DNA from: Asticcacaulis sp. AND118
Lineage (GTDB): Bacteria; Pseudomonadota; Alphaproteobacteria; Caulobacterales; Caulobacteraceae
DNA length: 64,000 nucleotides
Reading direction: 5' to 3'
NCBI RefSeq assembly: GCF_020535245.1
Contig: NZ_CP084910.1
Coordinates: 2,766,501 to 2,830,500, forward strand
Positions 5,469 to 36,846 of this stretch are shown here, piece by piece. A program made the translations under genes and the position numbers. Position 1 is the first letter of the stretch. Each line of letters opens with the position of its first letter. Below the pieces are notes generated by a model. That model searched no databases. It was not told where the DNA came from and was given only the letters and a program-made list of their open reading frames with translations.

Positions 5469-6224
5469 TTAGCCACGCGTTGCCTCTTCCGACGGGTTCT
5501 CCTCCGCAGATAAAGGCAAACTTTGGCGGAAGAGCGCCGTGGGGGAAGGTATGGCGCCTGCAGCATTTGCAGACTTGCCCAACGAAGAAAGCTTGACCCG
5601 GATGGCATGGCCCGTGCCCTTGACCACCTTGTGAATCATACCCGCTTCAATACCAAGGCGGTGCCACCCCCAGTCCTCGAAACCGATCCTGTTCGCAAGG
5701 TCCGTTTCCGGATATGGCACCTGCCGCAACAGCGACGTCTGCGTCAGACACAGGGCGGTCCAGGGATTTGCGGCGACAAGCGACAGAGTGTCGAAGTCTT
5801 CTGCTTCCATGTCCGGATGGGTCATGATTTCCCTGCGGGCGCCGAAATAAACGCTGATTTCCGGATGCCACACTATGGGGCGTGAATCGGCAATAGCGGC
5901 ATCCAGGCCCATTTTCAGCCAGGTCTCCCCCCAAAGATCATCCCCGTCCAGGAAGGCGATATACCTGCTATTCGCCGCCCCGACACCGGCATTGCGAGAG
6001 CGGCCCAGATCGCCGTAGTCGACCTCAAGCAGCTTCATGTCCAACTGGGCGGCCCCCTGCGCCACTTCGCGTGTCAGCGATCCGGGACGATCGAGCACGA
6101 CCAAAACCTCCACCGTGTAGCCTGCGGAACGGGCAAAGGCGGTGGCACGCGCCGCACTGAGCAAAGAGGGGGTCAGCAGCAAGCCTTCATTGTGAGCATT
6201 CACGATCACACTGAGATGGGTCAT
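5469..6224 (-). CDS. Family 2 glycosyltransferase
   Basis: This 251-residue compact GT-A protein opens with LSVIVNAHNEG and has RSRNAGVGAANSRYIAFLDGDD, where DGDD is the nucleotide-sugar/metal motif. It overlaps the upstream gene (6221-7453) by four bases, so the two are translationally coupled. A similar N-terminal glycosyltransferase domain occurs in the 753-residue protein at 7654 (SLAKSRNSGTQAARGKYV...DADD). The acceptor sugar is unknown. Confidence 0.85.
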   Translation of the reverse strand: MTHLSVIVNAHNEGLLLTPSLLSAARATAFARSAGYTVEVLVVLDRPGSLTREVAQGAAQLDMKLLEVDYGDLGRSRNAGVGAANSRYIAFLDGDDLWGETWLKMGLDAAIADSRPIVWHPEISVYFGARREIMTHPDMEAEDFDTLSLVAANPWTALCLTQTSLLRQVPYPETDLANRIGFEDWGWHRLGIEAGMIHKVVKGTGHAIRVKLSSLGKSANAAGAIPSPTALFRQSLPLSAEENPSEEATRG

Positions 6225-7453
6225 GCGGGGACCTTTCGGAAGATATTCAGCCAGTCGCTTCGATTGGCGACCGTCACGAGCTTGGCCTGCATCGCCGCAG
6301 GCAAGCGCAATGCCCGCCCCAGGGTTTCCGCATTTTCGAAACTATCGAGTATAAGCCCTTCCACAAAAGACAGCACGTCTCGGACATAGGCATCGCCCCC
6401 AGGCAAAGCCTGCGCACCAAGGTGCGCCCATATCGGCGTGACCTGCGCCAATGTCTGGACCTGCGCCCTCAACAAATCACGTCCGGTTTTGCTGTCGAGC
6501 ACCACAAGGCCAATGGGTTTCAGCGCCTGTATAAACCAGGACAGAACGACGATCCGTTCCTCCAAAGACAAATTCACCGGCAACTGTCCGCAAGAGGGCG
6601 ACGCCTCACAGAGGGTAAGCGAATCCGGGTCGAGAAGAAGTACCGATTTTTGCGCCCCCGCAAACAGATCAGCGACTTCCCTGTATGCCGGGGTGTCTAC
6701 GCTTCCGAGCACCAACACATCATACCGGCGCTTCAGCCCTTCGAAGAGCGATTTGAATGCCATATAGCTCCGCCCCCCAGGACGCCCGCTGTGGATGGGC
6801 AGGCGTCCGGCTTCGGCAAGCGTGACGACCTCCGTCACGTCGGAATCGAGATCGGCGACAGACTGCAAAACGGAGTGGGCGAGATCGTAAACGCCATCCG
6901 GCGCTTTTGCCAGGCGTCCTTCGTCCCGACCACTGCTCAGATAGTGTCCAAATGGATGAACCACCCGGACGTCAACATCCGGATATTGCCGCAAATACCA
7001 CTCCGTGTCGAATAACGGCCCGGGGGAAAGCCGACGATCGGCTCCGTACAGCACAAAATGATCCAGCGGCGAAATGACGTCGGTAGGTGTGTCCGGATAG
7101 GTGGCGACATACCAGTCCGCATCGAACCATCCCGAGGATGAAATCCGGCTGCGAAGTTGCTCAAGCCCTGCACGCCCCTCCACCGGTAGTGGAAAACGCC
7201 CTTCTGCGCGGCCATAATCGAGATAATGGACGAGAGGAATATGACCTGCGGCCAAGACATCGGGATACTCGTAGACGTACCACGCCGCATTGAACCTCGG
7301 GCCGGGCGAAAAACCTGCCGGCCCGCCGGTCTTCACAAAATGATCGAGCGCCGCCCCCTCTTTGCAATTCAGGTCATAGGTTCGCATGTACCACTCTGCG
7401 TCAAAAAAGCCCGACTCGGCTATCCGCCTATGGAGTCTCTTGTCACCGAACAT
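6221..7453 (-). CDS. Protein with four FDxxWY-type repeats plus an unassigned C-terminal domain
   Basis: The 410-residue product has four repeats at about residues 17-53, 54-91, 110-147 and 148-182. Each reads roughly FDxxWYxxxYPDV, a short linker, PLxHYxxxGxxEGR. The C-terminal ~225 residues look like a Rossmann-type fold (YDVLVLGSVDTPAY, KSVLLLDPDSL) and could be a GT-B-like half, but no catalytic motif is clear. The same repeat occurs at the C-terminus of the 783-residue protein (12450) and the N-terminus of the 700-residue glycosyltransferase (26648). It is the first gene of a two-gene unit, coupled to the downstream GT2 by an ATGA overlap. The repeat probably acts as a binding or docking module; this is inference. 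Confidence 0.75.
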   Translation of the reverse strand: MFGDKRLHRRIAESGFFDAEWYMRTYDLNCKEGAALDHFVKTGGPAGFSPGPRFNAAWYVYEYPDVLAAGHIPLVHYLDYGRAEGRFPLPVEGRAGLEQLRSRISSSGWFDADWYVATYPDTPTDVISPLDHFVLYGADRRLSPGPLFDTEWYLRQYPDVDVRVVHPFGHYLSSGRDEGRLAKAPDGVYDLAHSVLQSVADLDSDVTEVVTLAEAGRLPIHSGRPGGRSYMAFKSLFEGLKRRYDVLVLGSVDTPAYREVADLFAGAQKSVLLLDPDSLTLCEASPSCGQLPVNLSLEERIVVLSWFIQALKPIGLVVLDSKTGRDLLRAQVQTLAQVTPIWAHLGAQALPGGDAYVRDVLSFVEGLILDSFENAETLGRALRLPAAMQAKLVTVANRSDWLNIFRKVPA

Positions 7454-7653: not shown

Positions 7654-9915
7654 ATGCGTGAAGATGATGTATATCCATGTCAATTTCCGGTTTCAGACGA
7701 TATAGTCCACGAATTCGGTCTCGATAAAATTAATCAGGAAACGCGCTGGCGGCCTCAAATTAATCCTCTCAGGGTTTCCGCTTCGCTTGACATTTCACTT
7801 ATACTTACATTGCATCGCGAAGCCCGTTATCTGAAGCGGACTCTCGCATCGTTGACCGCTGCCGCTCAGTATGCCCGCCACAAGCATGCTCATCTACGTC
7901 TCGAATTGGTGGTGGTGCTCGACAATTCCGACGAACCAACAAGGCGCGTCCTTACATCAGAGCCCTTCGACGTCTTCGAAAGTCACCAGATAATAGCCGT
8001 TAGCCATGGCTCCCTAGCCAAGTCTCGAAACTCCGGTACTCAGGCCGCCCGCGGCAAATACGTCATGACTTGTGACGCGGACGACCTGATTTCCTTCAAC
8101 ATGATCGCTGGCCTCTACGCTACGGCTGAAGAGAATGCAGGCGAAGCCGCCGTATTCCCTGAGTTTTTGATGGGATTTGGTGATACGTCTTTCCTGTGTC
8201 GTTACTATGATAGTAAATACCTGCCTGCATGGGCTTTTCTTGATCGCCATCCGTATATTTCTCGCCTGCTTCTTCCCGTCGAATATGCACGCTCACATCC
8301 CTATCGCGATTCCGATCACAAATCCGGGTTTGCTTATGAGGATTGGTGGTTCAATTGTGAACTGGTCGCTGACGGCGTACAGATCGTCATTGCTCCCGAC
8401 ACGACCCTTTATTACCGGCAACGCCCAGGCACTCTGAGCCGCGACGCCGCGGCCACCGCCGCCCGGGTTATCCACGCGACACGACTCTACGAACCCAGGA
8501 CATTCGTGGCCGCCGCCGGCCGTTGGGAAGAAATCGTTCAGGGCGCTGAATGGACGCCCCCCCCACCGTCTGATGTTGCACGCGCTTTTTTTGAAAACCC
8601 CACAACGGAGTTGGCGGCCCACTACGCCAACCAGATTGATCCGGCGATCCGGTTCGACCGTGAAAAGGCAGGCGCCTGTTTCACCAATCTAGGACCGCCC
8701 TCGCCTGCCGGTCTGGCTTATTATAAAGCCTGCCATCTCACACTTCAGCAAGATTACACGGACATCTTCATTTTTCCCAACATGCAGGAGAATGAACACT
8801 ATTTCGCGGATTTGCTCACGGGGTTATATACGCAGTCCATCGGCAAACGCTTCCTTGTCCTCACAGGTGAAACGCCCAGCCTGCCGGCCAATTTGGAACA
8901 CCTACCTCCGAACACCGATTTTATCGACCTGTTCTCGACATGCCATGGCGATAAAAACACGATCGATCTCGTCGCTTACCGTCTTGTCGAGGCCGTGGGA
9001 ATGTCAGCTCGCATCCATGTGGGAAGCTGCGCCTTTACCCACAGGCTTCTCGGAAAGTATAACCGCACCCTCGCAGATCAATTATACTATTATCGTCGCA
9101 GCTATACGACCCATATCGCAGACGGCAAGCCATGGGTTTTTGATAGAGATTTTGAGATACTGAGCGAGTTTCTGGACTCGCTCCACCTTATCGTATGCGA
9201 TCATCAGGCAATTATCGACGCAGATCATAATCGGCTGGCTTTGGCGCCGGAACGATGGGCGTGTCTGCGGCCGGCCTGCCCTTTGCCGGAAAAGAAATGG
9301 ACGCCGGCAAAACGATCGGCAGAAAAGCCTCTGCGACTGCTCTGGTTCGCGCCCCTTAGTCCGGAAAGCCGCCCGCAGCTCATACAACCAATATTTGAAA
9401 CATTGCAGACCCTGGGGGTTCGCGTGACCTTTGATATATATGGTAGGCGGCCATGTCGCGAATTCGATGCAGCCCCCTGCGAAATCGATTTGCCACAAAC
9501 AACGAATGAAGCCTGTCGATACATGGGCGCAAAGCTTACACTGAAGGATGTGGACATCGACGAATATGATGCTTTTGTCTGCGCACCACTCTCTACCCAT
9601 GCGCCGAAAATCATTTTGGAAGCTATGGCCTGCGGACTGCCCGTTATTGCCTCCGATACTCACGCGCTTTCCGAAATCATCGAGACCGGCAGGTCGGGAT
9701 GGCTAGTCGCCTCGACGGGAAAAGACGACGCGGACAGCCTGAGTTACGCTCACTGCATTCTGGATCTTGTGAATTGCGGTGAACGACTTCATCAGATCAG
9801 CATCACGGCAAGAGAAACCGTTGAGCGCCGCCATAACCCCGATTTATTTGACGAAGTCCTGCGCAGTCTTTTTGCCGGCCCGTCTATTAACCCTTTGAAA
9901 AACGCTCGCCAGTGA
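7654..9915 (+). CDS. Two-domain glycosyltransferase (GT2 N-terminal, GT4-like C-terminal)
   Basis: The 753-residue protein has an N-terminal GT-A domain (about 45-300): ISLILTLHREARYL, LVVVLDNSDEP and CDADD with DADD at 141-144. The C-terminal part (about 535-740) is GT-B-like: LRLLWFAPLSPESRP and the GT4 sequence EAMACGLPVIASDTHALSEI with its conserved acidic residues. One polypeptide could therefore add two sugars in sequence. It is transcribed divergently from the 410-residue repeat protein and overlaps the next gene by four bases. The middle region (about 330-530) is unassigned. Confidence 0.8.
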   Translation: MREDDVYPCQFPVSDDIVHEFGLDKINQETRWRPQINPLRVSASLDISLILTLHREARYLKRTLASLTAAAQYARHKHAHLRLELVVVLDNSDEPTRRVLTSEPFDVFESHQIIAVSHGSLAKSRNSGTQAARGKYVMTCDADDLISFNMIAGLYATAEENAGEAAVFPEFLMGFGDTSFLCRYYDSKYLPAWAFLDRHPYISRLLLPVEYARSHPYRDSDHKSGFAYEDWWFNCELVADGVQIVIAPDTTLYYRQRPGTLSRDAAATAARVIHATRLYEPRTFVAAAGRWEEIVQGAEWTPPPPSDVARAFFENPTTELAAHYANQIDPAIRFDREKAGACFTNLGPPSPAGLAYYKACHLTLQQDYTDIFIFPNMQENEHYFADLLTGLYTQSIGKRFLVLTGETPSLPANLEHLPPNTDFIDLFSTCHGDKNTIDLVAYRLVEAVGMSARIHVGSCAFTHRLLGKYNRTLADQLYYYRRSYTTHIADGKPWVFDRDFEILSEFLDSLHLIVCDHQAIIDADHNRLALAPERWACLRPACPLPEKKWTPAKRSAEKPLRLLWFAPLSPESRPQLIQPIFETLQTLGVRVTFDIYGRRPCREFDAAPCEIDLPQTTNEACRYMGAKLTLKDVDIDEYDAFVCAPLSTHAPKIILEAMACGLPVIASDTHALSEIIETGRSGWLVASTGKDDADSLSYAHCILDLVNCGERLHQISITARETVERRHNPDLFDEVLRSLFAGPSINPLKNARQ

Positions 9916-10274
9916 CCCATCCAGCCCCACCCGCCATTCACCCAGACGACCTTATGGCCGCCTATGCTCATGAACGTGCGAGAGCCACAGCCCTTTGCGA
10001 TCGCCTCAACGTCGTCGAAAGACAGCTCGCCGCAAAGTCTGAGGCTCTGCTTGTACTTCAGACCTCCAGCTCCGATCGATGCAGCCGACTGGAAAATGAC
10101 GTGTGCATAGCTTACGGCCTCATTCACAAGCCGGAAGACGGCGATCCCGCTTCAAGTGAAGAAGCGCTGCAGCGTATTCAACAGGCCCTGCGTGAATTAC
10201 AGGCCCTGCAAAACTCCAAGGTTTTAAAAGTAGCGCGGTGGATGAAATCGAAGCTGTCGAGCAGGGCGAAATGA
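9912..10274 (+). CDS. Small predicted coiled-coil protein, function unknown
   Basis: The 120-residue product is rich in Ala, Leu, Glu and Arg with heptad-like spacing (residues 15-55 and 80-105) and a basic C-terminus (VARWMKSKLSSRAK). Similar short coiled-coil segments are often appended to glycosyltransferases in such loci. Here it is a separate gene starting inside the stop of the upstream two-domain enzyme (4-base overlap), so it is probably made with it and may be a partner subunit. No family recognised. Confidence 0.65.
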   Translation: MTHPAPPAIHPDDLMAAYAHERARATALCDRLNVVERQLAAKSEALLVLQTSSSDRCSRLENDVCIAYGLIHKPEDGDPASSEEALQRIQQALRELQALQNSKVLKVARWMKSKLSSRAK

Positions 10275-10411: not shown

Positions 10412-11191
10412 ATGAACAAAACAATAAAGGATCTAATTTCGGGAGCGAAATTATATCCTGTTTGGCTTCACCAAGCGTACCATATTTTAAGCACAAAGTA
10501 CAAACGCACTATATTCGGCACCTTATGGATAGCCGGAAACTTTGTATTTACCTCACTCGCCATTACGCTGGTATTCGGTCTGCTTTTCAAGCAAGATTTG
10601 AAGGTGTTTCTGCCTTATGCAATGCTCGGAAACCTGGCCGGAAGCGCATGCCTTTGGGTGTTATCCGAAGCGCCAGAAATATACATAAGCAACAGCAGCA
10701 TTATTAAAAACCACGCGTACCCATTTACATACTATTCCTTTGAGGCCGTTGCCAGGAATATTATGCTTTTTTTGCATAATCTGATTGTTTTCTACGTGTT
10801 CATGCTTTTCAATGGCACGCTTACGGTGCCGGGCTGGACCTTTGTACCTGGCATGATCATTGTCATAGGCTGCATGCTAACCTGGGGTACGGTCATCGGC
10901 ATGCTGTCCGCCCGATACAGAGACCTTCGCTATCTCATTCCCAACCTCTCTGCGCTCCTGTTCTTCCTGACGCCGCTATATTGGCGCGTCGAAACGCTCG
11001 GCCCGGATCACCAATGGGTGGCAGAGGTCAATCCTCTATACCATCTGGTGAGCATTATAAGATCGCCCCTGCTCGGAGTACCCGTCACCCAGCTAAACTG
11101 GATGTATTCCCTGGGCATGCTCGCAGTCGGCGCCGTGTTGTGGCTGGCCACATTCACTCCCTTCCGCAGACGAATTCCGTTCTGGATTTAA
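10412..11191 (+). CDS. ABC-2 type polysaccharide export permease (Wzm-like)
   Basis: This 259-residue integral membrane protein has about six hydrophobic segments and the usual ABC-2 exporter layout (N-terminal YKRTIFGTLW, C-terminal LTPLYWRVETL...VNPLYHLVSIIRSPLLG). With the downstream ATPase it should export an undecaprenyl-linked polysaccharide across the inner membrane. GGGGGACGAGG precedes the ATG. Bases 10441-10740 are A/T-rich (hand counts of 35-40% GC in two 60-base lines), while the 3' part is near 60%, a sign of mixed ancestry. The ATPase starts 15 bases after its stop. Confidence 0.88.
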   Translation: MNKTIKDLISGAKLYPVWLHQAYHILSTKYKRTIFGTLWIAGNFVFTSLAITLVFGLLFKQDLKVFLPYAMLGNLAGSACLWVLSEAPEIYISNSSIIKNHAYPFTYYSFEAVARNIMLFLHNLIVFYVFMLFNGTLTVPGWTFVPGMIIVIGCMLTWGTVIGMLSARYRDLRYLIPNLSALLFFLTPLYWRVETLGPDHQWVAEVNPLYHLVSIIRSPLLGVPVTQLNWMYSLGMLAVGAVLWLATFTPFRRRIPFWI

Positions 11192-11206: not shown

Positions 11207-11977
11207 ATGTCTAAGACTGTTATAGATCTTCACGGCGTGGAACTGGCCTACCCTATATACTCGGTACGGGCCCAGTCTCTCCGGAACACGATCGCCAACC
11301 TTGCAGTTGGCGGTAAGCTGCTGAAATCCGGGCAAGATGTCATCCACGTCGGCGCGCTGAATGGGCTATCCTTTTCGCTTCAGGACGGCGATCGTCTGGG
11401 GTTGATCGGGCATAATGGCGCAGGCAAAACCACGCTTTTGAAAGTCTTGGCCGGCGTCTACGAGCCTGACCGCGGCAAGGTCGAAATCAATGGTCGAATT
11501 TCGTCTATGATCGATCCCGGACTTGGGTTGGATCTCGAACTGACCGGCCGTGAAAACCTCATTAATATGGGGCGCATTCGCGGCTACACGACCAAGCAAA
11601 TCCTCACGAAGATGGCCGACATCGTCGAATTTACGGATTTGGGCCACTTTATAGATCTGCCGGTAAAAACCTACTCCGCCGGTATGTTGACCCGACTGAT
11701 CTTTGGCGTAGCCACCAGCCACGATCCGGAAATCCTGCTGATGGACGAATGGATTGGTGCCGGGGACAAATACTTCTTTGATAAGGCCACGGCGCGTCTC
11801 AACGACATTCTGACGCGCTCACGCGTTATCGTGCTGGCCAGTCATAATTATGCGCTCATTCAAGAACTGTGTAACAAGCTTCTTGTTCTTGACGGTGGCC
11901 GTCAAGTCTATTTTGGTGACATCAAGGGCTGGGACGAACACAACAACCGCCCCGTAGAAACAGCGCAGGCCAATTAA
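11207..11977 (+). CDS. ABC transporter ATPase for polysaccharide export (Wzt-like), no C-terminal carbohydrate-binding domain
   Basis: The 256-residue protein has Walker A GHNGAGKT at 68-75, an ABC signature reading YSAGM at 156-160, and Walker B ILLMDE at 176-181. The N-terminal VELAYPIYSVRAQSLRN extension is typical of Wzt/KpsT-type ATPases. It lacks the ~150-residue C-terminal carbohydrate-binding domain of Wzt proteins that recognise capped O-antigen, so it resembles the short type. It pairs with the permease immediately upstream. A hairpin with a T-run follows at 11985. Confidence 0.88.
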   Translation: MSKTVIDLHGVELAYPIYSVRAQSLRNTIANLAVGGKLLKSGQDVIHVGALNGLSFSLQDGDRLGLIGHNGAGKTTLLKVLAGVYEPDRGKVEINGRISSMIDPGLGLDLELTGRENLINMGRIRGYTTKQILTKMADIVEFTDLGHFIDLPVKTYSAGMLTRLIFGVATSHDPEILLMDEWIGAGDKYFFDKATARLNDILTRSRVIVLASHNYALIQELCNKLLVLDGGRQVYFGDIKGWDEHNNRPVETAQAN

Positions 11978-12449
11978 TCACTTGCAGGACGACAGTTCGC
12001 ACTATCGACTGTCATCCTGTGATTTTTTGCACCCAGAGACGTCTGGCGCTTTTGCGCGGTTAACGATGCGCATCATAGGCCTATTACTCTCCGGGACCAA
12101 TTGCAGGGTGGGTATGACAAACCTGGCCCACGTCAAAAAAACGCGCCCGGCACCGGTGACGGCATCAGCATACCACGGCCTTGGTATATTTTCGCCCCGC
12201 CTGCGCCCAGGCACTTTGCCGCCTATGCGTGCATATGGGTAATTGTCACTCTTCTTTAGGTCGCCGCTTCATAACTCCCGGAAATTTCCCTTTTCGACGG
12301 GCCTGATGCCTATCCTTGCTTGCATTTCTCCAGACAAACCGTCAAATAGATCAGCTAAGGCGAATGATACCGTTATAGAAAAGCAATACCCGTACCTATT
12401 TTAAACTGACTATGTTCAGTTAAGTCTAAGGCCTCTAAAGGAGCACCCT
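11978..12449. other. 472-base intergenic region between the exporter and the 783-residue protein
   Basis: Apart from the terminator at its left end I see no convincing gene. An 86-codon open frame (11982-12242) begins inside the hairpin and lacks a ribosome-binding site, so I do not call it. The right 150 bases are A/T-rich and probably contain the promoter of the gene at 12450, although no sigma-70-like pair is clear enough to name. AAAGGAG at 12437-12443 is the ribosome-binding site of that gene. Confidence 0.6.
11985..12028 (+). terminator. Probable intrinsic terminator after the ABC exporter genes
   Basis: A 12-bp stem with one mismatch (CAGGACGACAGT / ACTGTCATCCTG, 11985-11996 and 12008-12019) with an 11-base loop is followed within two bases by a six-T run. 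It lies eight bases after the ATPase stop. Confidence 0.75.
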
Positions 12450-14801
12450 GTGAAAAGAGAACACTTCTTTTCCAACCCCAAAGATGTCGTTTTTTATATG
12501 GCGCGCATGAATATATACGCGCTCGTTCAGGGTTTTGCTAAGGGTAAACGTGTTTTAGATTGGAATGGCTCCGAAGTCGCCGGCGTTAGCCTGTTGTCCG
12601 AGGTAGCGGGTAAATTGACCGTTTGCACCCATTCACACCTGCTCGCCGCTGAGTTGAAGCAAAAATTTGGCCGAAGCAAGGATATTGTCATTGCCCACAG
12701 CGATCCGATGGTCGACGACCTTCCCAAAGGCGCCTTCGACCTGATCGTCATAACGGTTCCCCCCAAGGGCCACTTCGTGAAGGCCACCGAACGAGCCAAA
12801 ACGCTCCTCACGCCGTCGGGTATGCTCGCTATCGCTATAGAAGATGATTTGCTTTTTGAGGATGTCGACGAAACTCAGACGTCCTCCAGGCTCGCATTGA
12901 ATAATCTTTTCAAAAACTGTGAATATTTAAATGTAAGGGCCAGCCCTTTTACCCTTATATCGTCTACAGAGGATGGAGATTTCGGGAGTAACGAGCCGGG
13001 CAAACAGGTTTCTATCTCCATTAATCCGCGTCTGGATTCCCCGCTTGAACCTCTCCAAACCAAATCAGGCATGGTTCAAGCGGCCTTTTGTTCCGATGCA
13101 CCGTTTGAACCACTTGAGCCTCGCACCCTATCCTTGATGGGTGTAGACATCTACAGCGAGCTTGTTGAAAAACTGGACAAAACGTCCGCAAAGTTTGAAG
13201 CCAGTCAAACCGATTTGTTTTTTCTGGAGAAGCGACACGACGCTGCCTTCACCGAACTGCTCGATCTGCGTAGCACCGCTGAGGCCTGTGCCAAGTGGGA
13301 GCAGGCCCATCAGAATGAATGCGCCAACCATGATAAATCACGCGATCAGATAGAAGTTTTGAAAGCTGAGGCTGCAGAGAGTCGGGAAAAACTCCAGGAA
13401 AGCCAAAGGCAAACCGCTGAGGCGTTCGATCAGGTTTCCAATCTTGAACGTGTATTGGCTGAGCATCGGGCTGAACTGGCTGATAACACTGCCAAGATAG
13501 ACGCTTTGAAAGCTGAGGCTGCAGAGGGTCGGGAAAAACTCCAGGAAAGCCAAAGACAAGCCGCTGAGGCGTTCGATCAGGTTTCCAATCTTGAACGTGT
13601 ATTGGCTGAGCATCGGGCTGAACTGGCGGATAACACTGCCAAGATAGATGCTTTCGCAAAGGAAGCCCTGGTGCAGGAAGCCTTGCAAGTCGAACTTGCT
13701 AAGCTCGATGCTTCCCTTTCGAGCGCCCACGCACAAATAGAAACCTTTGAAAAGCAAGCCTTAGAGCACAGGGCCCTGCACGCCGAACTTGCCGAGCTTA
13801 ATGAAAAAGCTTCCGAAGAGATTCAGGACCTGAAATCTGTACAGGACGCACTCCTGCGTGAGAAGAGCTGGATAATCCAGGAACTTGAACAACTCCGGAC
13901 CACGCACCTCAACGAAATCGCGTCTCGTGACGCTTTGGCTAATGAACTCGTCAGGGCGCGCTCGTCTCTCGAACAAGCCGCTCTTGAAAATGAAACCCTG
14001 CGTGGCGAACACGTCGAATTGGAACGGTTGCGCGCTTCGCTAGAGCATGCCGTTGGGGACAACGACCATTTGCTTGCTGAAAATGATGCCCTGACGCGGG
14101 AGAGGGTTTGGATCACGCAAGAATTGGAAACAACGCGGGCAGAACTTCATAATACAGAACATAAAGCACGCATGGCGTTGGACACGATTGCGCAGTTGCG
14201 CACCACGACGCACGTCACCTCCATATTTGAGCAAAGACCTCAGCGAGGCAATTCGCAGATCGACGCGGCAAAGCTCGAAATCAACAACTTGACAAGTCAG
14301 GTCGAAATCGCTCGACGCCATCAGGATCAGCAAACGAAAGAAGCTGAAAAGCAGGCCGTCGTTCTCAGGGCGAAGCTAAAGCGTTCGGAAGCCAATTACA
14401 AAAGGCTTGAGGAACTCATCACTTCCCTGCCCGCTGTCGTGCGCAAATCGCTCGGCATGTCACTGCCTCGCAAAGCCGCAAATATCGCGCAGATCAGCAA
14501 AATTATCGGTCCGTTTTTTGACAAGGCTTGGTACGCCGAGCAGTATAAAGACGTGCGCCAATCCTCACTGGACCCCCTTACGCACTACATAGTCTACGGA
14601 GAGCCTGAAGGGCGTGATCCACATCCGAAATTTTCGACGGAGTGGTATCTCGAAAGCAACCTGGACGTTATGGAAGCTGGCGTGAATGCGTTCGCGCATT
14701 TTATTGAGATGGGTCAGTATGAAGGCCGTGATCCGTCGCCTAACCACGCTTTGTCGACATTCGGGGGCGCGTTTCCGCCAGTCGTCGCTTCGGATATCTA
14801 G
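12450..14801 (+). CDS. Methyltransferase-like / long coiled-coil / FDxxWY-repeat protein; candidate polysaccharide chain-length ruler
   Basis: The 783-residue protein starts at GTG with AAAGGAG upstream. Residues 33-135 look like a class I methyltransferase fold (KRVLDWNGSEVAG in the motif I position, FDLIVITVPP, then LLTPSGMLAIAIE), but motif I is degenerate. Residues ~235-660 are a long charged coiled coil. Within it, residues 304-352 and 353-401 are an almost exact tandem duplication. Two FDxxWY...HY..G..EGRDP repeats sit at 689-727 and 728-765. Methyltransferase plus coiled coil beside an ABC exporter recalls WbdD of Escherichia coli O9a, whose coiled coil sets O-antigen length. No kinase domain is visible and the neighbouring ATPase lacks the domain that reads a terminal cap, so the mechanism would differ. 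Confidence 0.7.
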   Translation: MKREHFFSNPKDVVFYMARMNIYALVQGFAKGKRVLDWNGSEVAGVSLLSEVAGKLTVCTHSHLLAAELKQKFGRSKDIVIAHSDPMVDDLPKGAFDLIVITVPPKGHFVKATERAKTLLTPSGMLAIAIEDDLLFEDVDETQTSSRLALNNLFKNCEYLNVRASPFTLISSTEDGDFGSNEPGKQVSISINPRLDSPLEPLQTKSGMVQAAFCSDAPFEPLEPRTLSLMGVDIYSELVEKLDKTSAKFEASQTDLFFLEKRHDAAFTELLDLRSTAEACAKWEQAHQNECANHDKSRDQIEVLKAEAAESREKLQESQRQTAEAFDQVSNLERVLAEHRAELADNTAKIDALKAEAAEGREKLQESQRQAAEAFDQVSNLERVLAEHRAELADNTAKIDAFAKEALVQEALQVELAKLDASLSSAHAQIETFEKQALEHRALHAELAELNEKASEEIQDLKSVQDALLREKSWIIQELEQLRTTHLNEIASRDALANELVRARSSLEQAALENETLRGEHVELERLRASLEHAVGDNDHLLAENDALTRERVWITQELETTRAELHNTEHKARMALDTIAQLRTTTHVTSIFEQRPQRGNSQIDAAKLEINNLTSQVEIARRHQDQQTKEAEKQAVVLRAKLKRSEANYKRLEELITSLPAVVRKSLGMSLPRKAANIAQISKIIGPFFDKAWYAEQYKDVRQSSLDPLTHYIVYGEPEGRDPHPKFSTEWYLESNLDVMEAGVNAFAHFIEMGQYEGRDPSPNHALSTFGGAFPPVVASDI
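13359..13652 (+). repeat. Two-copy 147-bp in-frame tandem duplication inside the coiled coil
   Basis: Bases 13359-13505 and 13506-13652 are nearly identical direct repeats of 147 bp, exactly 49 codons and seven heptads. The few differences are single substitutions (for example GAGAGTCGGG versus GAGGGTCGGG). High identity at DNA level implies a recent duplication. Confidence 0.93.
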
Positions 14802-14930: not shown

Positions 14931-15791
14931 ATGGATATCGTAATGGTTCGTCTGCTGGGTGGGCTCGCCAATCAGCTTTTTCAGTACGCACTGGGAAGGA
15001 CATTGGCCATTCGCACCGGCGCCCTCCTGCGCTTTGATACCCGCGACCTTGATAACGACACCCTGCGGGATTACGCGCTCGATGTGTTGAACGTGCGCGG
15101 ATGCAAAGCCTCGCTCGCCGAACTTGATTATTTCCGTCCTGAAAATTCGAGCAAGATCACCTTGCTACAGGAAAAGAGCTTTACGTATGATCCGACCATC
15201 CGTTTGGCTCAGGCGCCCATTTACCTGTCGGGCTATTGGCAGTCGGAGAAATACTTTTTCGACATGGACTCGGTCTTGCGTCAGGACATTACCCTTGCGA
15301 CCCCCCTGTCGCAGCTTGGAAATGAATTGGCAAAGCGGATGGAGGCTACAAACTCCGTTTCCGTACATGTCCGCCGTGGCGATTACGTTACAAACAGCCA
15401 CACCAACACCTACCACGGCGCTGTAGGGGTGGATTATATAAATAAATCCATCCAGCATATCCATACCACACATCCGTCCTCCGTTTTCTTTGTGTTTTCT
15501 GACGATATCGAATGGACGAAAGCAAATCTGAAAAGTGAGGCGGAACTGGTTTTTGTGCCCGCCCGCCCAGATGCGTGCGACGCCGAAGACATGATCCTGA
15601 TGGGAAGATGTAAACATCACATCTTATCGAATTCCTCTTTTAGCTGGTGGGGCGCGTGGTTGAACCCCAGTCGTAGAAAGATTGTAATTGCGCCGTCTCC
15701 CTGGTTCAGAAATCCGGAAAACGACACCCGCGACCTCTACGGAGAGCGTTGGCTGAAACTGTCTATTCAGACTGGGGATAAGGTGGCCTGA
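14931..15791 (+). CDS. GT11-family fucosyltransferase-like protein (alpha-1,2-fucosyltransferase)
   Basis: The 286-residue length and motifs match bacterial GT11 enzymes: N-terminal GGLANQLFQYALGR, HVRRGDY at 146-152 and NSSFSWWGAWL at 234-244. GT11 enzymes transfer fucose from GDP-fucose, usually to the O-2 of galactose. No GDP-fucose synthesis genes (gmd, fcl) lie in the window, so the donor would come from elsewhere; GalE at 19489 could support galactose supply. GGGGCA lies shortly upstream of the ATG. It follows the 783-residue protein by 129 bases in the same direction. Confidence 0.9.
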   Translation: MDIVMVRLLGGLANQLFQYALGRTLAIRTGALLRFDTRDLDNDTLRDYALDVLNVRGCKASLAELDYFRPENSSKITLLQEKSFTYDPTIRLAQAPIYLSGYWQSEKYFFDMDSVLRQDITLATPLSQLGNELAKRMEATNSVSVHVRRGDYVTNSHTNTYHGAVGVDYINKSIQHIHTTHPSSVFFVFSDDIEWTKANLKSEAELVFVPARPDACDAEDMILMGRCKHHILSNSSFSWWGAWLNPSRRKIVIAPSPWFRNPENDTRDLYGERWLKLSIQTGDKVA

Positions 15792-15942
15792 CCGGAATAA
15801 TCACGCATCTTTACCATTCGCATTAATATACCGGTCGACATAGTTCCGATAGAAATAGTGTGGGGAATAAGCTATTGGCAAACCTCCGATTCATTCGCAG
15901 ATCGGATTATTGAGACCCGCTATTTCAGGAATACTTTGCACC

Positions 15943-16683
15943 ATGCGGACAGTTAGAATTGTACACCATCTGGCGTCGTCAGGGGGCACATTGGTAAGCC
16001 GGTGCCTTGCGTCAATGACGCAGGTTGGCCTTCTTAGCGAGCAACACCCTCTCCGAGCCATGCGTGAGCGCTACGACCCCTACCTTCACGCTTTTTGGCA
16101 AGGCTGGGGCTCTGAAAACGAGTTTATCGAGGGATTTCGAGCGCAAACGCAGATATTGCACGATGCCGCGGCGAAACACGATAAGACTCTAGTTATTCGT
16201 GACTGGACACACGCTGACTATTTCGGCAGTGAACGACTACGATCGATGACGGCTTCGTCGCTGGAAGGTCACTTCAATCTTATTCGAGCCGCGACCGTAC
16301 GCCACCCGATCGATACGTGGCTCTCGATGACCGCAAGCCGCTTTCTGGAATTTGATCACGCCGAGTTTTTGCGCCGGTTTCTCGCTTTTGCGGAAATGGC
16401 GGTCTCGATGCCTGTCATCCGCTACGAGGATGTCTGCCGTAGCCCGCAAAAAGCCATTGCCGAACTATGTACGGCCCTCGATATCAACTTCGAAGAAGAC
16501 TTTCTCGACCGCCTCACAAGCGTGATCTGGGTTACAGGCGCCAGCGGGCGAAAAGGTGACCTGCCTGAGCCTCGCCCCCGGCAACCGATCTCCAATGAAG
16601 ATTATGATAAGCTGGTGAGTAACCCCATGATGGCGGAAATCTGTTCACGGCTTGGCTACTCCGTCGAAGAGGATCCCAACTGA
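15943..16683 (+). CDS. Sulfotransferase-family protein (PAPS-dependent)
   Basis: The 246-residue product contains a PAPS 5'-phosphosulfate loop-like segment near the N-terminus (HHLASSGGTLVSRCLA) and a 3'-phosphate-binding segment (TVRHPIDTWLSM), followed by VIRYEDVCRSPQKAI, as in bacterial carbohydrate sulfotransferases. It would move a sulfuryl group from PAPS to a glycan hydroxyl. The ATG at 15943 is preferred to an in-frame TTG at 15910, though the upstream AGGA is 12 bases away. PAPS synthesis (cysD, cysNC) and PAP removal (cysQ) genes lie 17-21 kb downstream. Confidence 0.8.
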   Translation: MRTVRIVHHLASSGGTLVSRCLASMTQVGLLSEQHPLRAMRERYDPYLHAFWQGWGSENEFIEGFRAQTQILHDAAAKHDKTLVIRDWTHADYFGSERLRSMTASSLEGHFNLIRAATVRHPIDTWLSMTASRFLEFDHAEFLRRFLAFAEMAVSMPVIRYEDVCRSPQKAIAELCTALDINFEEDFLDRLTSVIWVTGASGRKGDLPEPRPRQPISNEDYDKLVSNPMMAEICSRLGYSVEEDPN

Positions 16684-21310: not shown

Positions 21311-22627
21311 TTATTTGTACATTTCGCACAACATCTCTTTCGGCACAATCAGGTTCGTCCCGGGCTTCTTCGCCACCACCATTTGCAGGCAATTTGGAAG
21401 ATCGACGATCCCATGCGCCACGATTTCGAAAATGCTCCCGATCAGGCGGCGGAATTCCGGAGTCGTCCATTCATGGAGAATATCCGTATTCAACGGAGCG
21501 CCTTCCAACCTGGACAGATTTCGACTGGCTAATAATTCCAGAGCGGGAACCGTAAAACTTATCGCCTTTAGATTGCTTCTCGCGAAAAAAGCGAGTACGT
21601 CTTCCGGCTTTTCAGCATACTCCAACATGTCACAGCATATGATCATGTCGCAGTCGACGATGGTGCGGTCGAAATGCGAACCATCACGCCAAATACGGTC
21701 AGGATATGTCTTGCGAAGGTAGGAGAGGTAAGGTTCGATCTCGTAGCCGATAGTATTGTGGTTATCAAACAGACGCATGAGGTTATCACCCGATCCGGCG
21801 CCGAAATTAACTATCTTCTGGAAACCGTTGGCGTCACTGAAACGACGCGCATTCGCATAGGTGCTCAGTTGATAAACACGCTGAAGATGCTGCGCCTGTC
21901 CGGAAAAAAGGTTTTCCACGTCACGATGAATGACGAAGCCGGCATACTCATGAAGCGTGCCTGCCCACAACCCGTCGCGATGTGCCAGAACACCAAGCAA
22001 GGCTTGATCCTGCCTATGGTTGGCACGCGATGAACCTCTAGGCGCTATGGCGCTGCGTACCCTTGCCAGGCGCGCCCATTCCAAACAGAGCCCACGGCCG
22101 GCTTCGTGCGCGGGGTCGAAGGCCACGCAAGCCCCGTTGACGTTCTCCTTTCCTTCCGCCCAAGCCTTGTCCAGGCCAAAAAAAGCCAAGGCCGAAGGAT
22201 GTGTCCAGTCTGCAAGCGTGCCGGACGAACGCGGCGAGTAGAAACCGTTACGAACCACAGCGTCATAAAGGGCGTCCAGTGGACACAGAATAAGATTGCC
22301 GGAATCCATCCAAACGACCGGCCCCCTCGCTTCCGTAAAAAGCGAGGCGATAATCGTCGGCTTCCAGGCATACTGCCCCGCCTCGCTGCGAATATCGAAC
22401 CAGGCCGGATGATGTTCATAATCGAAGCTACGCAGTTCCACGGCCGGCGTCAGGGCCAGGATTTTCGCACGTTGATCGGGCCGCAAGCCAAGGTCATAAG
22501 CAATGATCTGAGAGCGCGACTCGTGTTGCAAAGCGCTCGATAAAAACTGCAGCAATGAATCGCCGTGCGTGTGATCGGCCCCCGTGACAAGGGTCATCCG
22601 CCGTCGAGTTCCCATACCTTGTTCCAT
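21311..22627 (-). CDS. Fusion: GT8/DUF1647-like N-terminal domain plus SAM methyltransferase C-terminal domain
   Basis: The 438-residue protein (ATG 22627; an in-frame TTG at 22645 is possible) has an N-terminal ~235-residue domain with TLVTGADHTHGDSLLQFL, GQYAWKPTII, VVWMDSGNLIL and SSRANHRQDQALL, resembling glycosyltransferase-fold proteins in which WMDSG would be the donor site. The C-terminal ~190 residues form a class I methyltransferase: KIVNFGAGSGDNL (motif I) and CDMIICCDMLEYAEKPEDVL. The next gene upstream shares the first domain but carries an unrelated FkbM-type second domain. Enzyme activity of the first domain is inferred only from fold-like motifs. Confidence 0.72.
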   Translation of the reverse strand: MEQGMGTRRRMTLVTGADHTHGDSLLQFLSSALQHESRSQIIAYDLGLRPDQRAKILALTPAVELRSFDYEHHPAWFDIRSEAGQYAWKPTIIASLFTEARGPVVWMDSGNLILCPLDALYDAVVRNGFYSPRSSGTLADWTHPSALAFFGLDKAWAEGKENVNGACVAFDPAHEAGRGLCLEWARLARVRSAIAPRGSSRANHRQDQALLGVLAHRDGLWAGTLHEYAGFVIHRDVENLFSGQAQHLQRVYQLSTYANARRFSDANGFQKIVNFGAGSGDNLMRLFDNHNTIGYEIEPYLSYLRKTYPDRIWRDGSHFDRTIVDCDMIICCDMLEYAEKPEDVLAFFARSNLKAISFTVPALELLASRNLSRLEGAPLNTDILHEWTTPEFRRLIGSIFEIVAHGIVDLPNCLQMVVAKKPGTNLIVPKEMLCEMYK

Positions 22628-22698
22628 GTTCACGAAATTTTCCAATTTTTACACAGTTGCGATATCAGATAAGAGTATTGGAAAGTTTGGCTTGGCTT

Positions 22699-24108
22699 CT
22701 ACTTTAAAGACCAACCCTCCCATACAAATGGATAGTTAAATATATTCCGATGCGTAATACTGAGACGATCATTCATTAAACGTCGCCTTTCTACAGATTT
22801 TGCTTCGTACAAATTATACTTAATATAAATTTTGCTTATAACTGGAAGAAAATCCTGGAGCTGATCCAAGACATCATATTCCACCCCTTCGGCATCAATT
22901 TTAATTAAATCAAATTTATTGAGCCCAAAATCCGCTACCAGACCATTGATATTTAAAATGCGAACGATTTCTACACGCGTAGATTCAGAAATTGGATAAA
23001 TGGAGGAACTGTCTTCACTCAAGTGAATTTTATAAGTTCCAAAATTACCCAAGCCATATGGCGCAATATTTACATTCTCACATTCTGAAAATTTTCTTTC
23101 CAGCGTCTGCAAAAATTCGCTCGCAGGTTCGATGAGGTATAATCTCGGATGAAAACGGTTGTTAATCCGTTCGGCCCACGCTCCGCGATGCGCGCCAATA
23201 TCGACCACAACACTCTCTTCATTCAACCCATCGGGGATCAGAAAAGCCGCCTCGCCACCGTCGGCCTCAAACTTGGCAGCCGCCAGTTCTCGCACCTGTA
23301 ACGCCTCGACTTCATAGTCCAGCATCAGGCCGTCGACTTCGACGCGTCCGCTCACCATCTGCGGACGCGGATTGTCGTCGATGTCACAATGGACAATATA
23401 GTCGACAAACGACCTTTGGCAGGTATCAGCCAAACCGGCACGATGAGCCAGCACGCTAAGCAAGGCCTGATCCTGGCGGTGATTGGCGCGCGAAGAACCA
23501 ATTGGGGCAATGGCGGCTTTGTCTTGCGCCAATTCGCACCATTCCCTGCCAAGCTTTGCGCCCGCCGGATGCCAGGGATCGAAACCGACGCAAGCCCCGT
23601 TTACATTGTGCTTGTGTTCGCCCCACGCCTTATTCAGGCCAAAATGGGCAAGCGTTTTTTCGTGAGTCCACGTCGCAACGGTCCCGGCCGACTCCGGCGA
23701 ACTGAAGCCGTTGCGTACTATCCGTCCATAGAGGCTGTTCAGGGGACGTAAAATCAAATCTCCGGAATCCATCCAAAGGACCGGTCCCCACGCGTCCTTC
23801 ATCACCTCACCGATAATCGTCGGTTTCCAGGCGTATTGACCGGCCTCGACCCGAATATCGAACCAGTCCGGATATTTGGAGAAATCAAATGTGCGAAGTT
23901 CGATCTTACCGCCCAGCGCCAGAACATCCAGCCTCTGTTTCGTGGTGAGGCCCAAGTCATAAGCGATAATACGCGACCGGGATTCATGGCGAAGCGCACT
24001 TTTCAAAAACTGCAAGAGAGATCGGCCATGCGTGACGTCGGCACCCGTAACGATGGTCAAGGGCCGCGGACGCACCTTCCCCAGAAAGGCTTCGGATACA
24101 AAGCTCAT
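22699..24108 (-). CDS. Fusion: same GT8/DUF1647-like N-terminal domain plus FkbM methyltransferase C-terminal domain
   Basis: The first ~240 residues of this 469-residue protein parallel the neighbour at 21311: LTIVTGADVTHGRSLLQFL, GQYAWKPTIIGE, VLWMDSGDLIL, SSRANHRQDQALL. The C-terminal part is FkbM-like: SVVVDIGAHRGAW, LYLIEPASEF, DLIKIDAEGVEYDVL. Base composition changes inside the gene: 22741-22860 counts 39 G+C of 120 (33%), while 23521-23580 counts 38 of 60 (63%). The break, near 23,100, lies just inside the methyltransferase domain. Its ATG overlaps the stop of the 133-residue gene by four bases. Confidence 0.75.
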   Translation of the reverse strand: MSFVSEAFLGKVRPRPLTIVTGADVTHGRSLLQFLKSALRHESRSRIIAYDLGLTTKQRLDVLALGGKIELRTFDFSKYPDWFDIRVEAGQYAWKPTIIGEVMKDAWGPVLWMDSGDLILRPLNSLYGRIVRNGFSSPESAGTVATWTHEKTLAHFGLNKAWGEHKHNVNGACVGFDPWHPAGAKLGREWCELAQDKAAIAPIGSSRANHRQDQALLSVLAHRAGLADTCQRSFVDYIVHCDIDDNPRPQMVSGRVEVDGLMLDYEVEALQVRELAAAKFEADGGEAAFLIPDGLNEESVVVDIGAHRGAWAERINNRFHPRLYLIEPASEFLQTLERKFSECENVNIAPYGLGNFGTYKIHLSEDSSSIYPISESTRVEIVRILNINGLVADFGLNKFDLIKIDAEGVEYDVLDQLQDFLPVISKIYIKYNLYEAKSVERRRLMNDRLSITHRNIFNYPFVWEGWSLK

Positions 24109-26647: not shown

Positions 26648-28750
26648 TTAGCTACGGAGCGCCATTAATCTATCCCGTACGCTCTGTACCCGCGGCGGGA
26701 AGGCTAAGGTCATATCCTCCCGTACCAATGTCAGGTTAGGATTATACGCATCGTCGTCAAGGAGACCATCGCCGTACCGGGACTTGATAATATTGATTTC
26801 CGAGTTTTCACGTGCCTTCTTGGCTGGTGAATCCTCGGTCCCTCGCGATGCTGATTCATAGTGATACATTTGGGCGTAGGGCGCATAGATGTTGCGATAG
26901 CCCGCCGCTCGGACCTTGAGACAGAAATCAACGTCGTTGAACGCCACGGCAAGGCTTTCGTCCAGACCGCCCACCTGTTCATAAATGGATTTGCGAACCA
27001 GCAGTACGGCTGCTGTCACTGCGCCGAGCGACTGATGGACAACGGCGCGACCGCCATACCCGATGTCACCCTTCTTCAAAAACTTGTGCATGTGCCCGGC
27101 CACTCCATGGAACCCCAGGAGAACACCGCCATGCTGAAGAGTGTCGTCAGGATACCAAAGTCTTGCGCCCACACACCCGACATCTGGCTGAGCGGCAAAG
27201 GCAAGCATTTCCTCAATCCAGTCCGGTGTGATGATTTCAATATCGTTGTTCATCAGACAGACATAATCGCCGCGCGACGCGCGGACCGCGGCATTATTGA
27301 GTGCGGAAAAGTTGAACGGACGCTCGTCGCGCAGAACCCGTATACGGCTGTCCTCAAGGGTCTGGAAATAAGCCAGGGATTCTGGCTCAACCGAGCCGTT
27401 ATCGACGACGATAATTTCAAAATTTGCATAGGTCGTGCGCGTGATAACAGAATCGATGGCCATGCTCAAAAGTTCTATACGATCCCTTGTGGGAATAATA
27501 ATACTAACGAGCGGCCAAGGCTGAGGTATGGCAAATCGCACCCGGTTGAATTGGGGCGCCTCTTCAAGGACCAGCACATCGCCCGCGCGCCCGGTACGCG
27601 CAAAATGTTCACGGACAACATCCGGATCTGCCGTCTCGCTTTCGATATTCATGGTCTTATGGTTCAAAAGGCGCGGGACGTGGAGAAACGCTTCGCGCCC
27701 TTCGGCCTCAAATATACGCAGCGCCATGTCACGCGAAGAATCCGCGCCATTACGCCACCCGCCCAGGGATTCGACAAGTTCTCTACGGTAGACGAGAAAA
27801 CGTCCCAAATAATTGTGGCTCAGCAATAGCTCGTAATTAAAACGCGGTCGAAATTCCGGATCATAGCGAAAGCCCGCCGTGATCTCCAACCGATCCTCGT
27901 CTCCATAAACCAGTCCTGCGCCCGGCTGATCATCAAGCGCCAGCGCAACCCAGAAAAGCGCCCCGACGCCTAGAACGTCCTGGGCGTCAAGAACGGCGAC
28001 ATAGTCACCCGACGCCTCATCCAACAGCTTGTTGGCGGTCTCTTCACGCGACCAGTCATCAGGCACCTCTCGAATACGCAGGCGTTCATCATCAAGGATC
28101 AAATCTTCGATGAGACGGCGATTGTCTTCGGGCAGGGTCTCCGGCAGGGCCAGAAGACCTTCGAACTGGCTGTAGGCCTGATGCTTCAAGCTGTCGAGAC
28201 TGGCACGCAATTCCATCGGACTATCGGTCGGCCGAACGATCCAAATTACGCTGAACCACGCGGTTAAACCGGCTTGGTCGGCAAACGCTTCCATGTCGGG
28301 CCTTATATCCGTCTCCGCATCCTCATACATGGCCAGCCAGTCGCGATATTCCGGGCGGACGCTACGCTGTTCTTCTGCATTTATGTAGAGGAAACGGGCA
28401 GGCCGTCCTTCACGCCTCCCGAACTGTTTGTAATGGCTCCATCCATCGATGCGCGCACCGGCCAGATTGGGATTTTGCTTAAAATACCAGTTGGGGTCGA
28501 AAAAACGGGCAGATAGGCCGGTGTCCAGGCCTTCATGCAGAAAATGACGCCAGGCCGGGCCGGGATAGCCGGCAACTTCTGGATTTTGCTCCAGATACCA
28601 TTGCTCATCGAAATTGTGCGCACGCAGCGCAACAGATCTGTAGAACCTATCGACTGTAGGAAAAACGATATCTGTCACCCGATGCTTCAGTCGCGCCAGT
28701 GGCGCCATTACCCGAAACAGTTTGGATCGGATTCCATGCATCATTTTCAT
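26648..28750 (-). CDS. Tandem GT2 glycosyltransferase with two N-terminal FDxxWY repeats
   Basis: The 700-residue protein has two FDxxWY repeats at about 47-83 and 84-119, a divergent first GT-A domain (about 165-400, SGDYVAVLDAQDVLG and YGDEDR at 282-287), and a canonical second one (about 413-660: VSIIIPTRDRIELL, IIVVDNGS, MNNDIE with NND at 501-503, AFNDVDFCLKVR). The layout matches large rhamnan-type GT2 proteins. The first domain may be structural or have a different donor. It lies five bases downstream of the gene at 28756 on the same strand. Confidence 0.85.
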   Translation of the reverse strand: MKMMHGIRSKLFRVMAPLARLKHRVTDIVFPTVDRFYRSVALRAHNFDEQWYLEQNPEVAGYPGPAWRHFLHEGLDTGLSARFFDPNWYFKQNPNLAGARIDGWSHYKQFGRREGRPARFLYINAEEQRSVRPEYRDWLAMYEDAETDIRPDMEAFADQAGLTAWFSVIWIVRPTDSPMELRASLDSLKHQAYSQFEGLLALPETLPEDNRRLIEDLILDDERLRIREVPDDWSREETANKLLDEASGDYVAVLDAQDVLGVGALFWVALALDDQPGAGLVYGDEDRLEITAGFRYDPEFRPRFNYELLLSHNYLGRFLVYRRELVESLGGWRNGADSSRDMALRIFEAEGREAFLHVPRLLNHKTMNIESETADPDVVREHFARTGRAGDVLVLEEAPQFNRVRFAIPQPWPLVSIIIPTRDRIELLSMAIDSVITRTTYANFEIIVVDNGSVEPESLAYFQTLEDSRIRVLRDERPFNFSALNNAAVRASRGDYVCLMNNDIEIITPDWIEEMLAFAAQPDVGCVGARLWYPDDTLQHGGVLLGFHGVAGHMHKFLKKGDIGYGGRAVVHQSLGAVTAAVLLVRKSIYEQVGGLDESLAVAFNDVDFCLKVRAAGYRNIYAPYAQMYHYESASRGTEDSPAKKARENSEINIIKSRYGDGLLDDDAYNPNLTLVREDMTLAFPPRVQSVRDRLMALRS

Positions 28751-36644: not shown

Positions 36645-36784
36645 GCCTTGCCACACACTCTTTTTCGCGAACCCTCGGTCCGTTCTCTTGTGCGGCTTTT
36701 ACGAAGGAAGCGTTCGGCAAACAAACGTAAAAGGCTGGCGACACGGTTCAGTCTGACTAATCTTTCTCAATTGAGAGGCGCGCA

Positions 36785-36846
36785 TCTATATCCGAAACGA
36801 AGTTCGGCGAAGCCAAAACCGCTTCACACTTTTCGGGATGTGCTTA
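36785..36846. repeat. Intergenic palindromic repeat, copy 3 (long form) overlapping the cysQ 3' end
   Basis: Read on the reverse strand this is AAGCACATCCCGAAAAGTGT, GAAGCGGTTTTGGCTTCGCC, GAACTTCGTTTCGG. It is the long subtype also seen at 30979. It overlaps the cysQ reading frame: the last residues STSRKV and the TGA stop of CysQ are encoded by the repeat. Confidence 0.75.

What the first reader, a model, noticed from the sequence alone, without database searches (positions are those of the whole stretch)
12450..14801. Candidate WbdD-like chain-length ruler beside a Wzm/Wzt exporter
Seen: a degenerate methyltransferase-like domain, a ~425-residue coiled coil and C-terminal FDxxWY repeats in one 783-residue protein, following the ABC exporter genes. 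Known: in E. coli O9a, WbdD caps the chain and its coiled coil sets chain length, and its polymer is exported by Wzm/Wzt. Inference: this protein could be a distinct ruler type. The absent kinase domain and the Wzt lacking a cap-binding domain mean it would not be a simple WbdD homologue.
Basis: partly seen in the sequence, partly recalled or inferred. Interest (0 to 1): 0.75.

Follow-up and report, generated by a model that had tools for sequence, protein, structure and literature searches.

The report
Candidate coiled-coil sugar-chain length ruler
Next to the pump that exports a surface sugar chain, this bacterium carries a long rod-shaped protein of the kind that can measure the chain, but the capping enzyme at its tip looks worn out, so it may be a ruler that no longer puts on a cap.

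Summary
In detail: an intact 783-residue ORF (12450-14801, +) with a methyltransferase-like head, a real coiled coil (353-434 residues by threshold) and two FDxxWY-type repeats, 472 bp behind wzm/wzt. It is not a WbdD homologue. It fits better the kinase-free methyltransferase-coil proteins beside ABC exporters. The closest studied case is E. coli O101/O162: the Wzt of an O89/O101/O162-type locus also lacks a cap-binding domain and is 44% identical to the window's, and there an intact MTase-coil protein is needed for terminal methylation and its loss changes chain length (PMC13168486). A Shinella plasmid locus has the same domain order after wzm-wzt, with a much shorter coil. The window's head is strongly diverged (8 of 17 alignable near-invariant family positions kept, 11 more not alignable; GEGYG read as SEVAG), so it is probably inactive. 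The coil carries a 147-bp tandem duplication (49 residues, 7 heptads); a sister-species coil protein has 3.9 copies of a 270-bp unit. The FD module gives a confident helical model with no solved relative found. Best reading: polymerase scaffold and length ruler whose cap comes from elsewhere or is not needed. Activity, length control and binding partners are inferred.

The parts
12450..14801 (+). 783-aa candidate coiled-coil ruler/scaffold gene
   Evidence: ORF and ribosome site
12507..12869 (+). Diverged class I methyltransferase-like core (residues 20-140); SAM-site motif eroded
13146..14447 (+). Coiled coil (residues 233-666 at the loosest threshold)
13348..13641 (+). Tandem duplication, 2 x 147 bp, 96% identical, 49 residues = 7 heptads per unit
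14463..14516 (+). Helix with basic residues (672-689) between coil and FD module; candidate membrane or partner contact (inference)
   Evidence: model; sequence
14517..14750 (+). FD module: two repeats (FDKAWY, FSTEWY), helical, confident model, no solved relative found
10412..11191 (+). Wzm, ABC-2 permease (nearest NCBIfam model galactan export, below its cut-off)
11207..11977 (+). Wzt, 256 aa, no Wzt_C cap-binding domain; 44% identical to Wzt of an E. coli O89/O101/O162-type locus
11982..12022 (+). Probable intrinsic terminator after wzt
6221..7453 (-). 410-aa protein with N-terminal FD repeats, unknown C-terminal domain
26648..28750 (-). 700-aa GT2 glycosyltransferase with N-terminal FD repeats
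7654..9915 (+). GT2-GT4 fusion, candidate polymerase component (inference)
14931..15791 (+). GT11 family glycosyltransferase, next gene after the ruler

Best explanation
The protein is a coiled-coil scaffold and chain-length ruler of the polymerase-terminator kind, built on the kinase-free methyltransferase-coil plan. Its C-terminal FD module sits at the membrane-near end and gathers glycosyltransferases; the same module is fused to a GT2 enzyme of this locus and to glycosyltransferases of sister species. The rod (353-434 residues, about 52-64 nm if fully helical) holds the N-terminal domain away from that end. That domain descends from a methyltransferase but has probably lost SAM binding, so it would touch or hold the far end of the chain rather than cap it, or leave capping to a partner. 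Export needs no cap because this Wzt has no cap-binding domain. Shown: domain order, coil, duplication, motif loss, exporter type, shared FD module. Inferred: membrane end, docking, length control, loss of activity.
For: Real coil. Profile link of the head to MTases most of which are followed by a coil. Same order of domains after wzm-wzt in Shinella sumterensis: wzm, wzt, MTase, then MTase - coil of only 28 scored residues - two FD-type repeats. MTase-coil directly after wzm-wzt in Rhizobium rosettiformans. Methyltransf_24 - coil of about 370 scored residues - one FD repeat in another Shinella plasmid. CBM-free Wzt together with an MTase-coil protein in an E. coli O89/O101/O162-type locus; in O101/O162 strains loss of that protein changes methylation and chain length (PMC13168486). 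Coil proteins with other heads near Wzm in the order: Capsule_synth (a family with Kdo transferases, by recall) in G006, FkbM MTase in A. benevestitus, MTase-like in an Aquidulcibacter MAG. Coil repeat duplication here and in G006. In this genome the FD module is found only in this locus: 4 places in 3 proteins at E up to 1. Rule from the literature that a coil protein marks terminator systems (PMC11231755).
Against: No close relative of the head was found, so conservation cannot be tested. Single-sequence AlphaFold2 of it failed (pLDDT 36). The segment after the core that family members share did not test positive (1289 of 5000 shuffles reach the window's score). Other class I MTases of the genus match the same profile better than the window does, so the tie is to class I MTases at large. 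The nearest NCBIfam models for Wzm and Wzt are galactan exporters, which by recall work without a terminator, and Wzm is only 29% identical to the O89/O101/O162 one. Long coils are not general here: 6 of 21 Wzm loci have one of 100 residues or more, against 2 of 40 control stretches, and in G006 and A. benevestitus the coil gene lies about 9 kb from the exporter genes. The G006 repeat unit, 90 residues, is not a whole number of heptads. A probable terminator separates the gene from wzt. FD docking rests on co-occurrence only.
Confidence: 0.55

Rival explanations
1. An ordinary capping terminator: the N-terminal domain still binds SAM through an unusual site and methylates the chain end, as proposed for E. 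coli O101/O162.
For: Profile match to active-looking MTases; VLD, one Glu and one Gly of the motif remain; published parallel.
Against: 8 of 28 near-invariant family columns kept, 17 being alignable; two of three motif glycines and the acidic residue after strand 2 are replaced; the ETxEH motif is not aligned. The 25 genus MTases listed in the same test keep 6 to 22, most of them 11 to 13.
Confidence: 0.2
2. A scaffold only: it assembles the glycosyltransferases through the FD module, and coil length has no effect on chain length.
For: FD module shared with glycosyltransferases and other enzymes; in O101 the authors suggest the MTase-coil protein is also needed for a glycosyltransferase step.
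Against: A scaffold alone would not seem to need so long a rod (inference); the window coil and the G006 coil both grew by repeat duplication, though this happens in coils of any function.
Confidence: 0.2
3. A coiled-coil cell-organisation protein (polarity or envelope) that only happens to lie beside the exporter.
For: Both control coil proteins look, by eye and recall, like polarity or stalk proteins of this order; a separate transcription unit is likely.
Against: FD module and MTase-like head belong to glycan proteins; the FD module was found only in this locus of the genome.
Confidence: 0.05

Closest known systems
MTase-coil protein (MT) of the E. coli O101/O162/Onovel32 O-antigen locus
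   Same: No kinase; MTase then coil; in the O89/O101/O162-type locus examined the Wzt has no Wzt_C and is 44% identical to the window's; MT published as needed for terminal O-methylation and for the normal chain-length profile (PMC13168486)
   Different: Intact GEGYG motif; shorter coil (74 residues, 265-338, against 353 by the same scorer and threshold); no FD module; Wzm only 29% identical
WbdD of E. coli O9a / K. pneumoniae O3
   Same: N-terminal catalytic head, coil, C-terminal membrane and polymerase-recruiting end; Wzm/Wzt export (passages of PMC3482155 and PMC11231755)
   Different: WbdD has a kinase and an active MTase, and its Wzt has a cap-binding module; no sequence match in the PDB search
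Shinella sumterensis plasmid locus wzm-wzt-MTase-[MTase-coil-FD] (L138)
   Same: Same domain order and nearly the same place after wzm-wzt
   Different: Active-looking MTase, coil of only 28 scored residues, Wzt with Wzt_C; function untested
WbbB (K. pneumoniae O12) and ORF7 (O4), Kdo-adding terminators with coils (PMC11231755)
   Same: Terminator head separated from the membrane end by a coil
   Different: Heads are glycosyltransferases; the nearer parallel is the sister-species protein in G006, not the window protein

Membership tests
WbdD-type kinase-methyltransferase terminator | Kinase domain between MTase and coil | tested here: not met
   No kinase family at E up to 1 in Pfam or NCBIfam; residues 141-232 look too short for one (inference)
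WbdD-type kinase-methyltransferase terminator | Sequence relation to WbdD | tested here: not met
   None of the 18 PDB matches at E up to 10 is a WbdD entry (codes 4AZS/T/V/W)
WbdD-type kinase-methyltransferase terminator | Extended coiled coil | tested here: met
WbdD-type kinase-methyltransferase terminator | Wzt with cap-binding C-terminal module | tested here: not met
Kinase-free MTase-coil terminator (O101/O162 type) | MTase domain related to that family | tested here: met
   hhalign 93.4%, E 2.5e-7, residues 20-140; 16.7 bits against 2.9 best of 500 shuffles; does not single out this family among class I MTases
Kinase-free MTase-coil terminator (O101/O162 type) | Intact SAM-binding and catalytic motifs | tested here: not met
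   8 of 28 near-invariant columns kept, 17 alignable
Kinase-free MTase-coil terminator (O101/O162 type) | Conserved segment between MTase core and coil | tested here: not met
   1289 of 5000 shuffles reach the window's score
Kinase-free MTase-coil terminator (O101/O162 type) | Coil behind the MTase domain | tested here: met
Kinase-free MTase-coil terminator (O101/O162 type) | Location beside wzm/wzt | tested here: met
   Same strand, 472 bp after wzt, with a probable terminator between
Kinase-free MTase-coil terminator (O101/O162 type) | Caps the chain and sets its length | not testable with these tools
   Needs enzymology and mutants
Proteins with the FD (FDxxWY) module | Two or more repeats of the type FDxxWY...H...G..EGR | tested here: met

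The most novel reading that the evidence does not exclude
A cap-independent ruler: a pseudo-methyltransferase on a rod of about 52-64 nm sets polysaccharide length by holding or blocking the chain end, without chemical capping, in a system whose exporter does not read a cap; rod length is tuned in evolution by duplication of coil units (49 residues here, 90 in a sister species).
Probability: 0.25. Interest if true: 0.75.

Novelty: new variant of a known kind. Interest (0 to 1): 0.5.

Why it matters
In the terminator systems described in the passages I saw, length control, capping and cap recognition by Wzt go together; O101/O162 already loosens the last link. A protein that keeps coil and polymerase-side module but has lost the enzyme motif would separate ruler from cap and make it possible to ask whether the rod alone sets length. 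The repeat duplications (7 heptads here; 3.9 copies of 90 residues in a sister species) are candidate natural length variants. The FD module, found on glycosyltransferases, a sulfotransferase, methyltransferases and these rods, hit no Pfam model in the window proteins tested and no solved structure, and looks like a general assembly module of alphaproteobacterial glycan loci.

Tried and rejected
Pfam and NCBIfam on the window protein gave only coil noise. The search for relatives of the head failed: own genome only among 41 genomes; 2 of 385 class genomes, the second by eye an RsmB-like rRNA methyltransferase; 15 of 398 order genomes at E up to 0.1, the 14 others with E 0.0014 or worse and 6 of them with stops inside; no relative among 48 candidate stretches of the genome-contig scan; 2 and 6 plasmid records at E 1 and 10, of which 3 are annotated as DNA repair exonucleases. 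The hit at E 10 in R. rosettiformans (H43) was the useful lead. AlphaFold2 without alignment failed, and I did not feed it an MTase alignment because that would push the fold. My guess that residues 207-224 match a conserved segment of the family is not supported (in one search the peptides were out of register; note 3 states the guess as if settled, which it is not). Coil enrichment at Wzm loci is modest and was not given a p-value: 8 coil proteins of 100 residues or more in 21 loci (708 kb; 19 Asticcacaulis loci with the closer Wzm type, and 2 others) against 2 in 40 control stretches (800 kb); the window is one of the 8, and one, in G011, is a glycosyltransferase with an N-terminal coil. 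Of 25 genus genomes 6 were left out of that count: 4 with only a distant Wzm and 2 with none at E 1e-10. Fold search with the FD model gave no match. Of 13 MTase loci that I picked from longer hit lists, Skermanella (no coil) and Aquicella (different N-terminus, no coil found) were left out of the 11-member HMM; among the 11, the scored coil begins soon after the MTase in 9, later in Pseudodesulfovibrio and Methylobacterium.

Full report
What is there. The window comes from a genome of the genus Asticcacaulis: several of its genus neighbours (G009, G021, G016, G017, G007) have contigs of the same length as named Asticcacaulis contigs of the genome-contig scan. The ORF at 12450-14801 is intact, 783 residues, with a good ribosome site. 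It lies 472 bp behind wzt; a stable hairpin followed by six U (11982-12022; -19.6 kcal/mol, z -4.2, none of 200 shuffles as stable) probably ends the wzm-wzt transcript. The simple scanner did not list this hairpin, and its count of terminator-like sites was no more than in shuffles.

The coil. With a heptad scorer of my own the coil spans residues 233-666 at the loosest threshold and 353 residues at the default one. The stretch 235-660 scores 8 standard deviations above its shuffles, 0 of 200 reaching it. It contains a 147-bp tandem duplication, 96% identical, that is, 49 residues or seven heptads, so the register is kept.

The head. No Pfam family matches at E up to 10. In the PDB sequence search 8 of 12 listed matches are named SAM-dependent methyltransferases, best E 0.033; the top match, E 0.003, is named hypothetical. 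A weak plasmid hit led to a Rhizobium rosettiformans locus, wzm-wzt-MTase. This 355-residue MTase has a coil behind it and aligns with the window head at 29% identity over 92 columns (E 2e-4 for the single comparison). A profile of six such MTases matches residues 20-140 (93.4%, E 2.5e-7), and an HMM of eleven gives 16.7 bits against at most 2.9 bits in 500 shuffles. This shows a methyltransferase origin; other class I MTases of the genus match the same HMM with higher scores, about 49 to 108 bits, so it does not prove that the head belongs to this family rather than to class I MTases at large. Of 28 near-invariant family columns the window can be aligned in 17 and keeps 8: GEGYG is read as SEVAG, the acidic residue that follows as threonine, and the SFETxEH motif is not aligned. 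Loss of activity is an inference from this. The idea that the next segment (207-224) also matches was tested and failed.

The tail. Two repeats, FDKAWY and FSTEWY, form a small helical module. With 15 rows the model has mean pLDDT 83, 72 of 132 residues at 90 or more, and a helix with basic residues in front of it. No solved structure matches by fold or convincingly by sequence (best E 0.11). In the plasmid collection the module matches 126 records at E up to 0.1; among the 40 listed are glycosyltransferases, a sulfotransferase and methyltransferases. It is found in 19 of 25 genus genomes and, in the window's genome, only in this locus: 4 places in 3 proteins at E up to 1, the fourth weak. One of these proteins, 26648-28750, is a GT2 glycosyltransferase. 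In the loci held there are 47 distinct proteins with the module; in 22 it is not N-terminal, and 13 have a coil ending within 105 residues before it (this replaces a first count of 27, which held duplicates). Seven of the 13 are plasmid proteins that I had picked, five are Caulobacterales proteins not picked for coils, one is the window's.

Relatives by architecture. Shinella sumterensis: wzm, wzt with Wzt_C, MTase, then MTase - coil of 28 scored residues - two FD-type repeats. Shinella sp. WSC3-e: Methyltransf_24 - coil of about 370 scored residues - one FD repeat, with no exporter gene in the 16 kb shown. Azospirillum: Methyltransf_24 - short coil - FD repeats - glycosyltransferase, between the ABC ATPase and permease genes. 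Novosphingobium: sulfotransferase-coil-FD. Methylovirgula and Aminobacter: MTase-coil-FD followed by more sequence. Near Wzm in Caulobacterales: G006 has a Capsule_synth head (23.8 bits, cut-off 20) on a coil with 3.9 copies of a 270-bp unit at 99%, about 9 kb from wzt on the other strand; the unit of 90 residues is not a whole number of heptads, and the coil shows an 18-residue rhythm. A. benevestitus has an FkbM head, about 9 kb from the exporter genes; an Aquidulcibacter MAG an MTase-like head (weak PCMT and Methyltransf_31 hits below cut-off; PDB methyltransferases at E 0.001) on a 383-residue coil; G023 an unknown head right after wzt. So where there is a rod, the head differs. Yet most loci lack a rod: 6 of 21 have one of 100 residues or more, against 2 of 40 control stretches.

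Comparison with the literature. From the first part of the discussion and passages of PMC11231755: a coil protein marks polymerase-terminator systems, the terminator sits at the distal end, and the terminated examples have a cap-binding module on Wzt. From passages and the first part of the discussion of PMC13168486: in E. coli O101/O162 an MTase-coil protein is needed for terminal O-methylation, its loss changes chain-length profile and composition, and the authors suggest a ruler. Here I find that the Wzt of an E. coli plasmid locus annotated O89/O101/O162 has no Wzt_C and is 44% identical to the window's, while the Wzm proteins share 29%. The nearest NCBIfam models for the window's Wzm and Wzt are galactan exporters, below their cut-offs. 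WbdD data are from passages of PMC3482155; passages of PMC10629545 were also seen. The survey by Mann, Kimber and Whitfield (Glycobiology 2019) was seen only as a reference; the 2015 ruler paper is not held.

Verdict. Likely a variant of the wider coil-ruler kind, with a decayed head and an FD tail. Whether it measures, scaffolds or both is open. I looked for prior description; the titles and abstracts listed (only the top few of thousands) name no such protein in Asticcacaulis and no FDxxWY module, and the library covers open-licence papers only. The checking round changed several facts (alignable columns, FD count, PDB names, the 90-residue unit) but none that requires other odds.

Noticed in passing
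window 8000-30000: GC falls to 0.51-0.55 against 0.56-0.64 outside, as in an acquired polysaccharide island.
   Followed up: no
window 33811-37633 (-) and 15910-16683 (+): Sulfate-activation-type genes (GTPase fused to APS kinase, PAPS_reduct-family protein, inositol-phosphatase-family protein) lie beside the locus and a sulfotransferase-like gene (Sulfotransfer_3 E 2e-4, below cut-off) lies in it: the glycan may be sulfated.
   Followed up: partly
window 6221-7453 (-): FD repeats followed by about 200 residues with no Pfam or NCBIfam match beyond chance level.
   Followed up: no
L067 9917-13282 (-): Sister-species coil protein: Capsule_synth head and a coil with 3.9 copies of a 270-bp unit, 99% matches; a natural candidate for coil-length variation.
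   Followed up: partly
window 21311-24108 (-): Two neighbouring proteins with DUF1647-like N-termini, one fused to an FkbM methyltransferase.
   Followed up: no
window 9912-10274 (+): Small 120-residue ORF before wzm, no family above cut-off; coil-like by eye.
   Followed up: no
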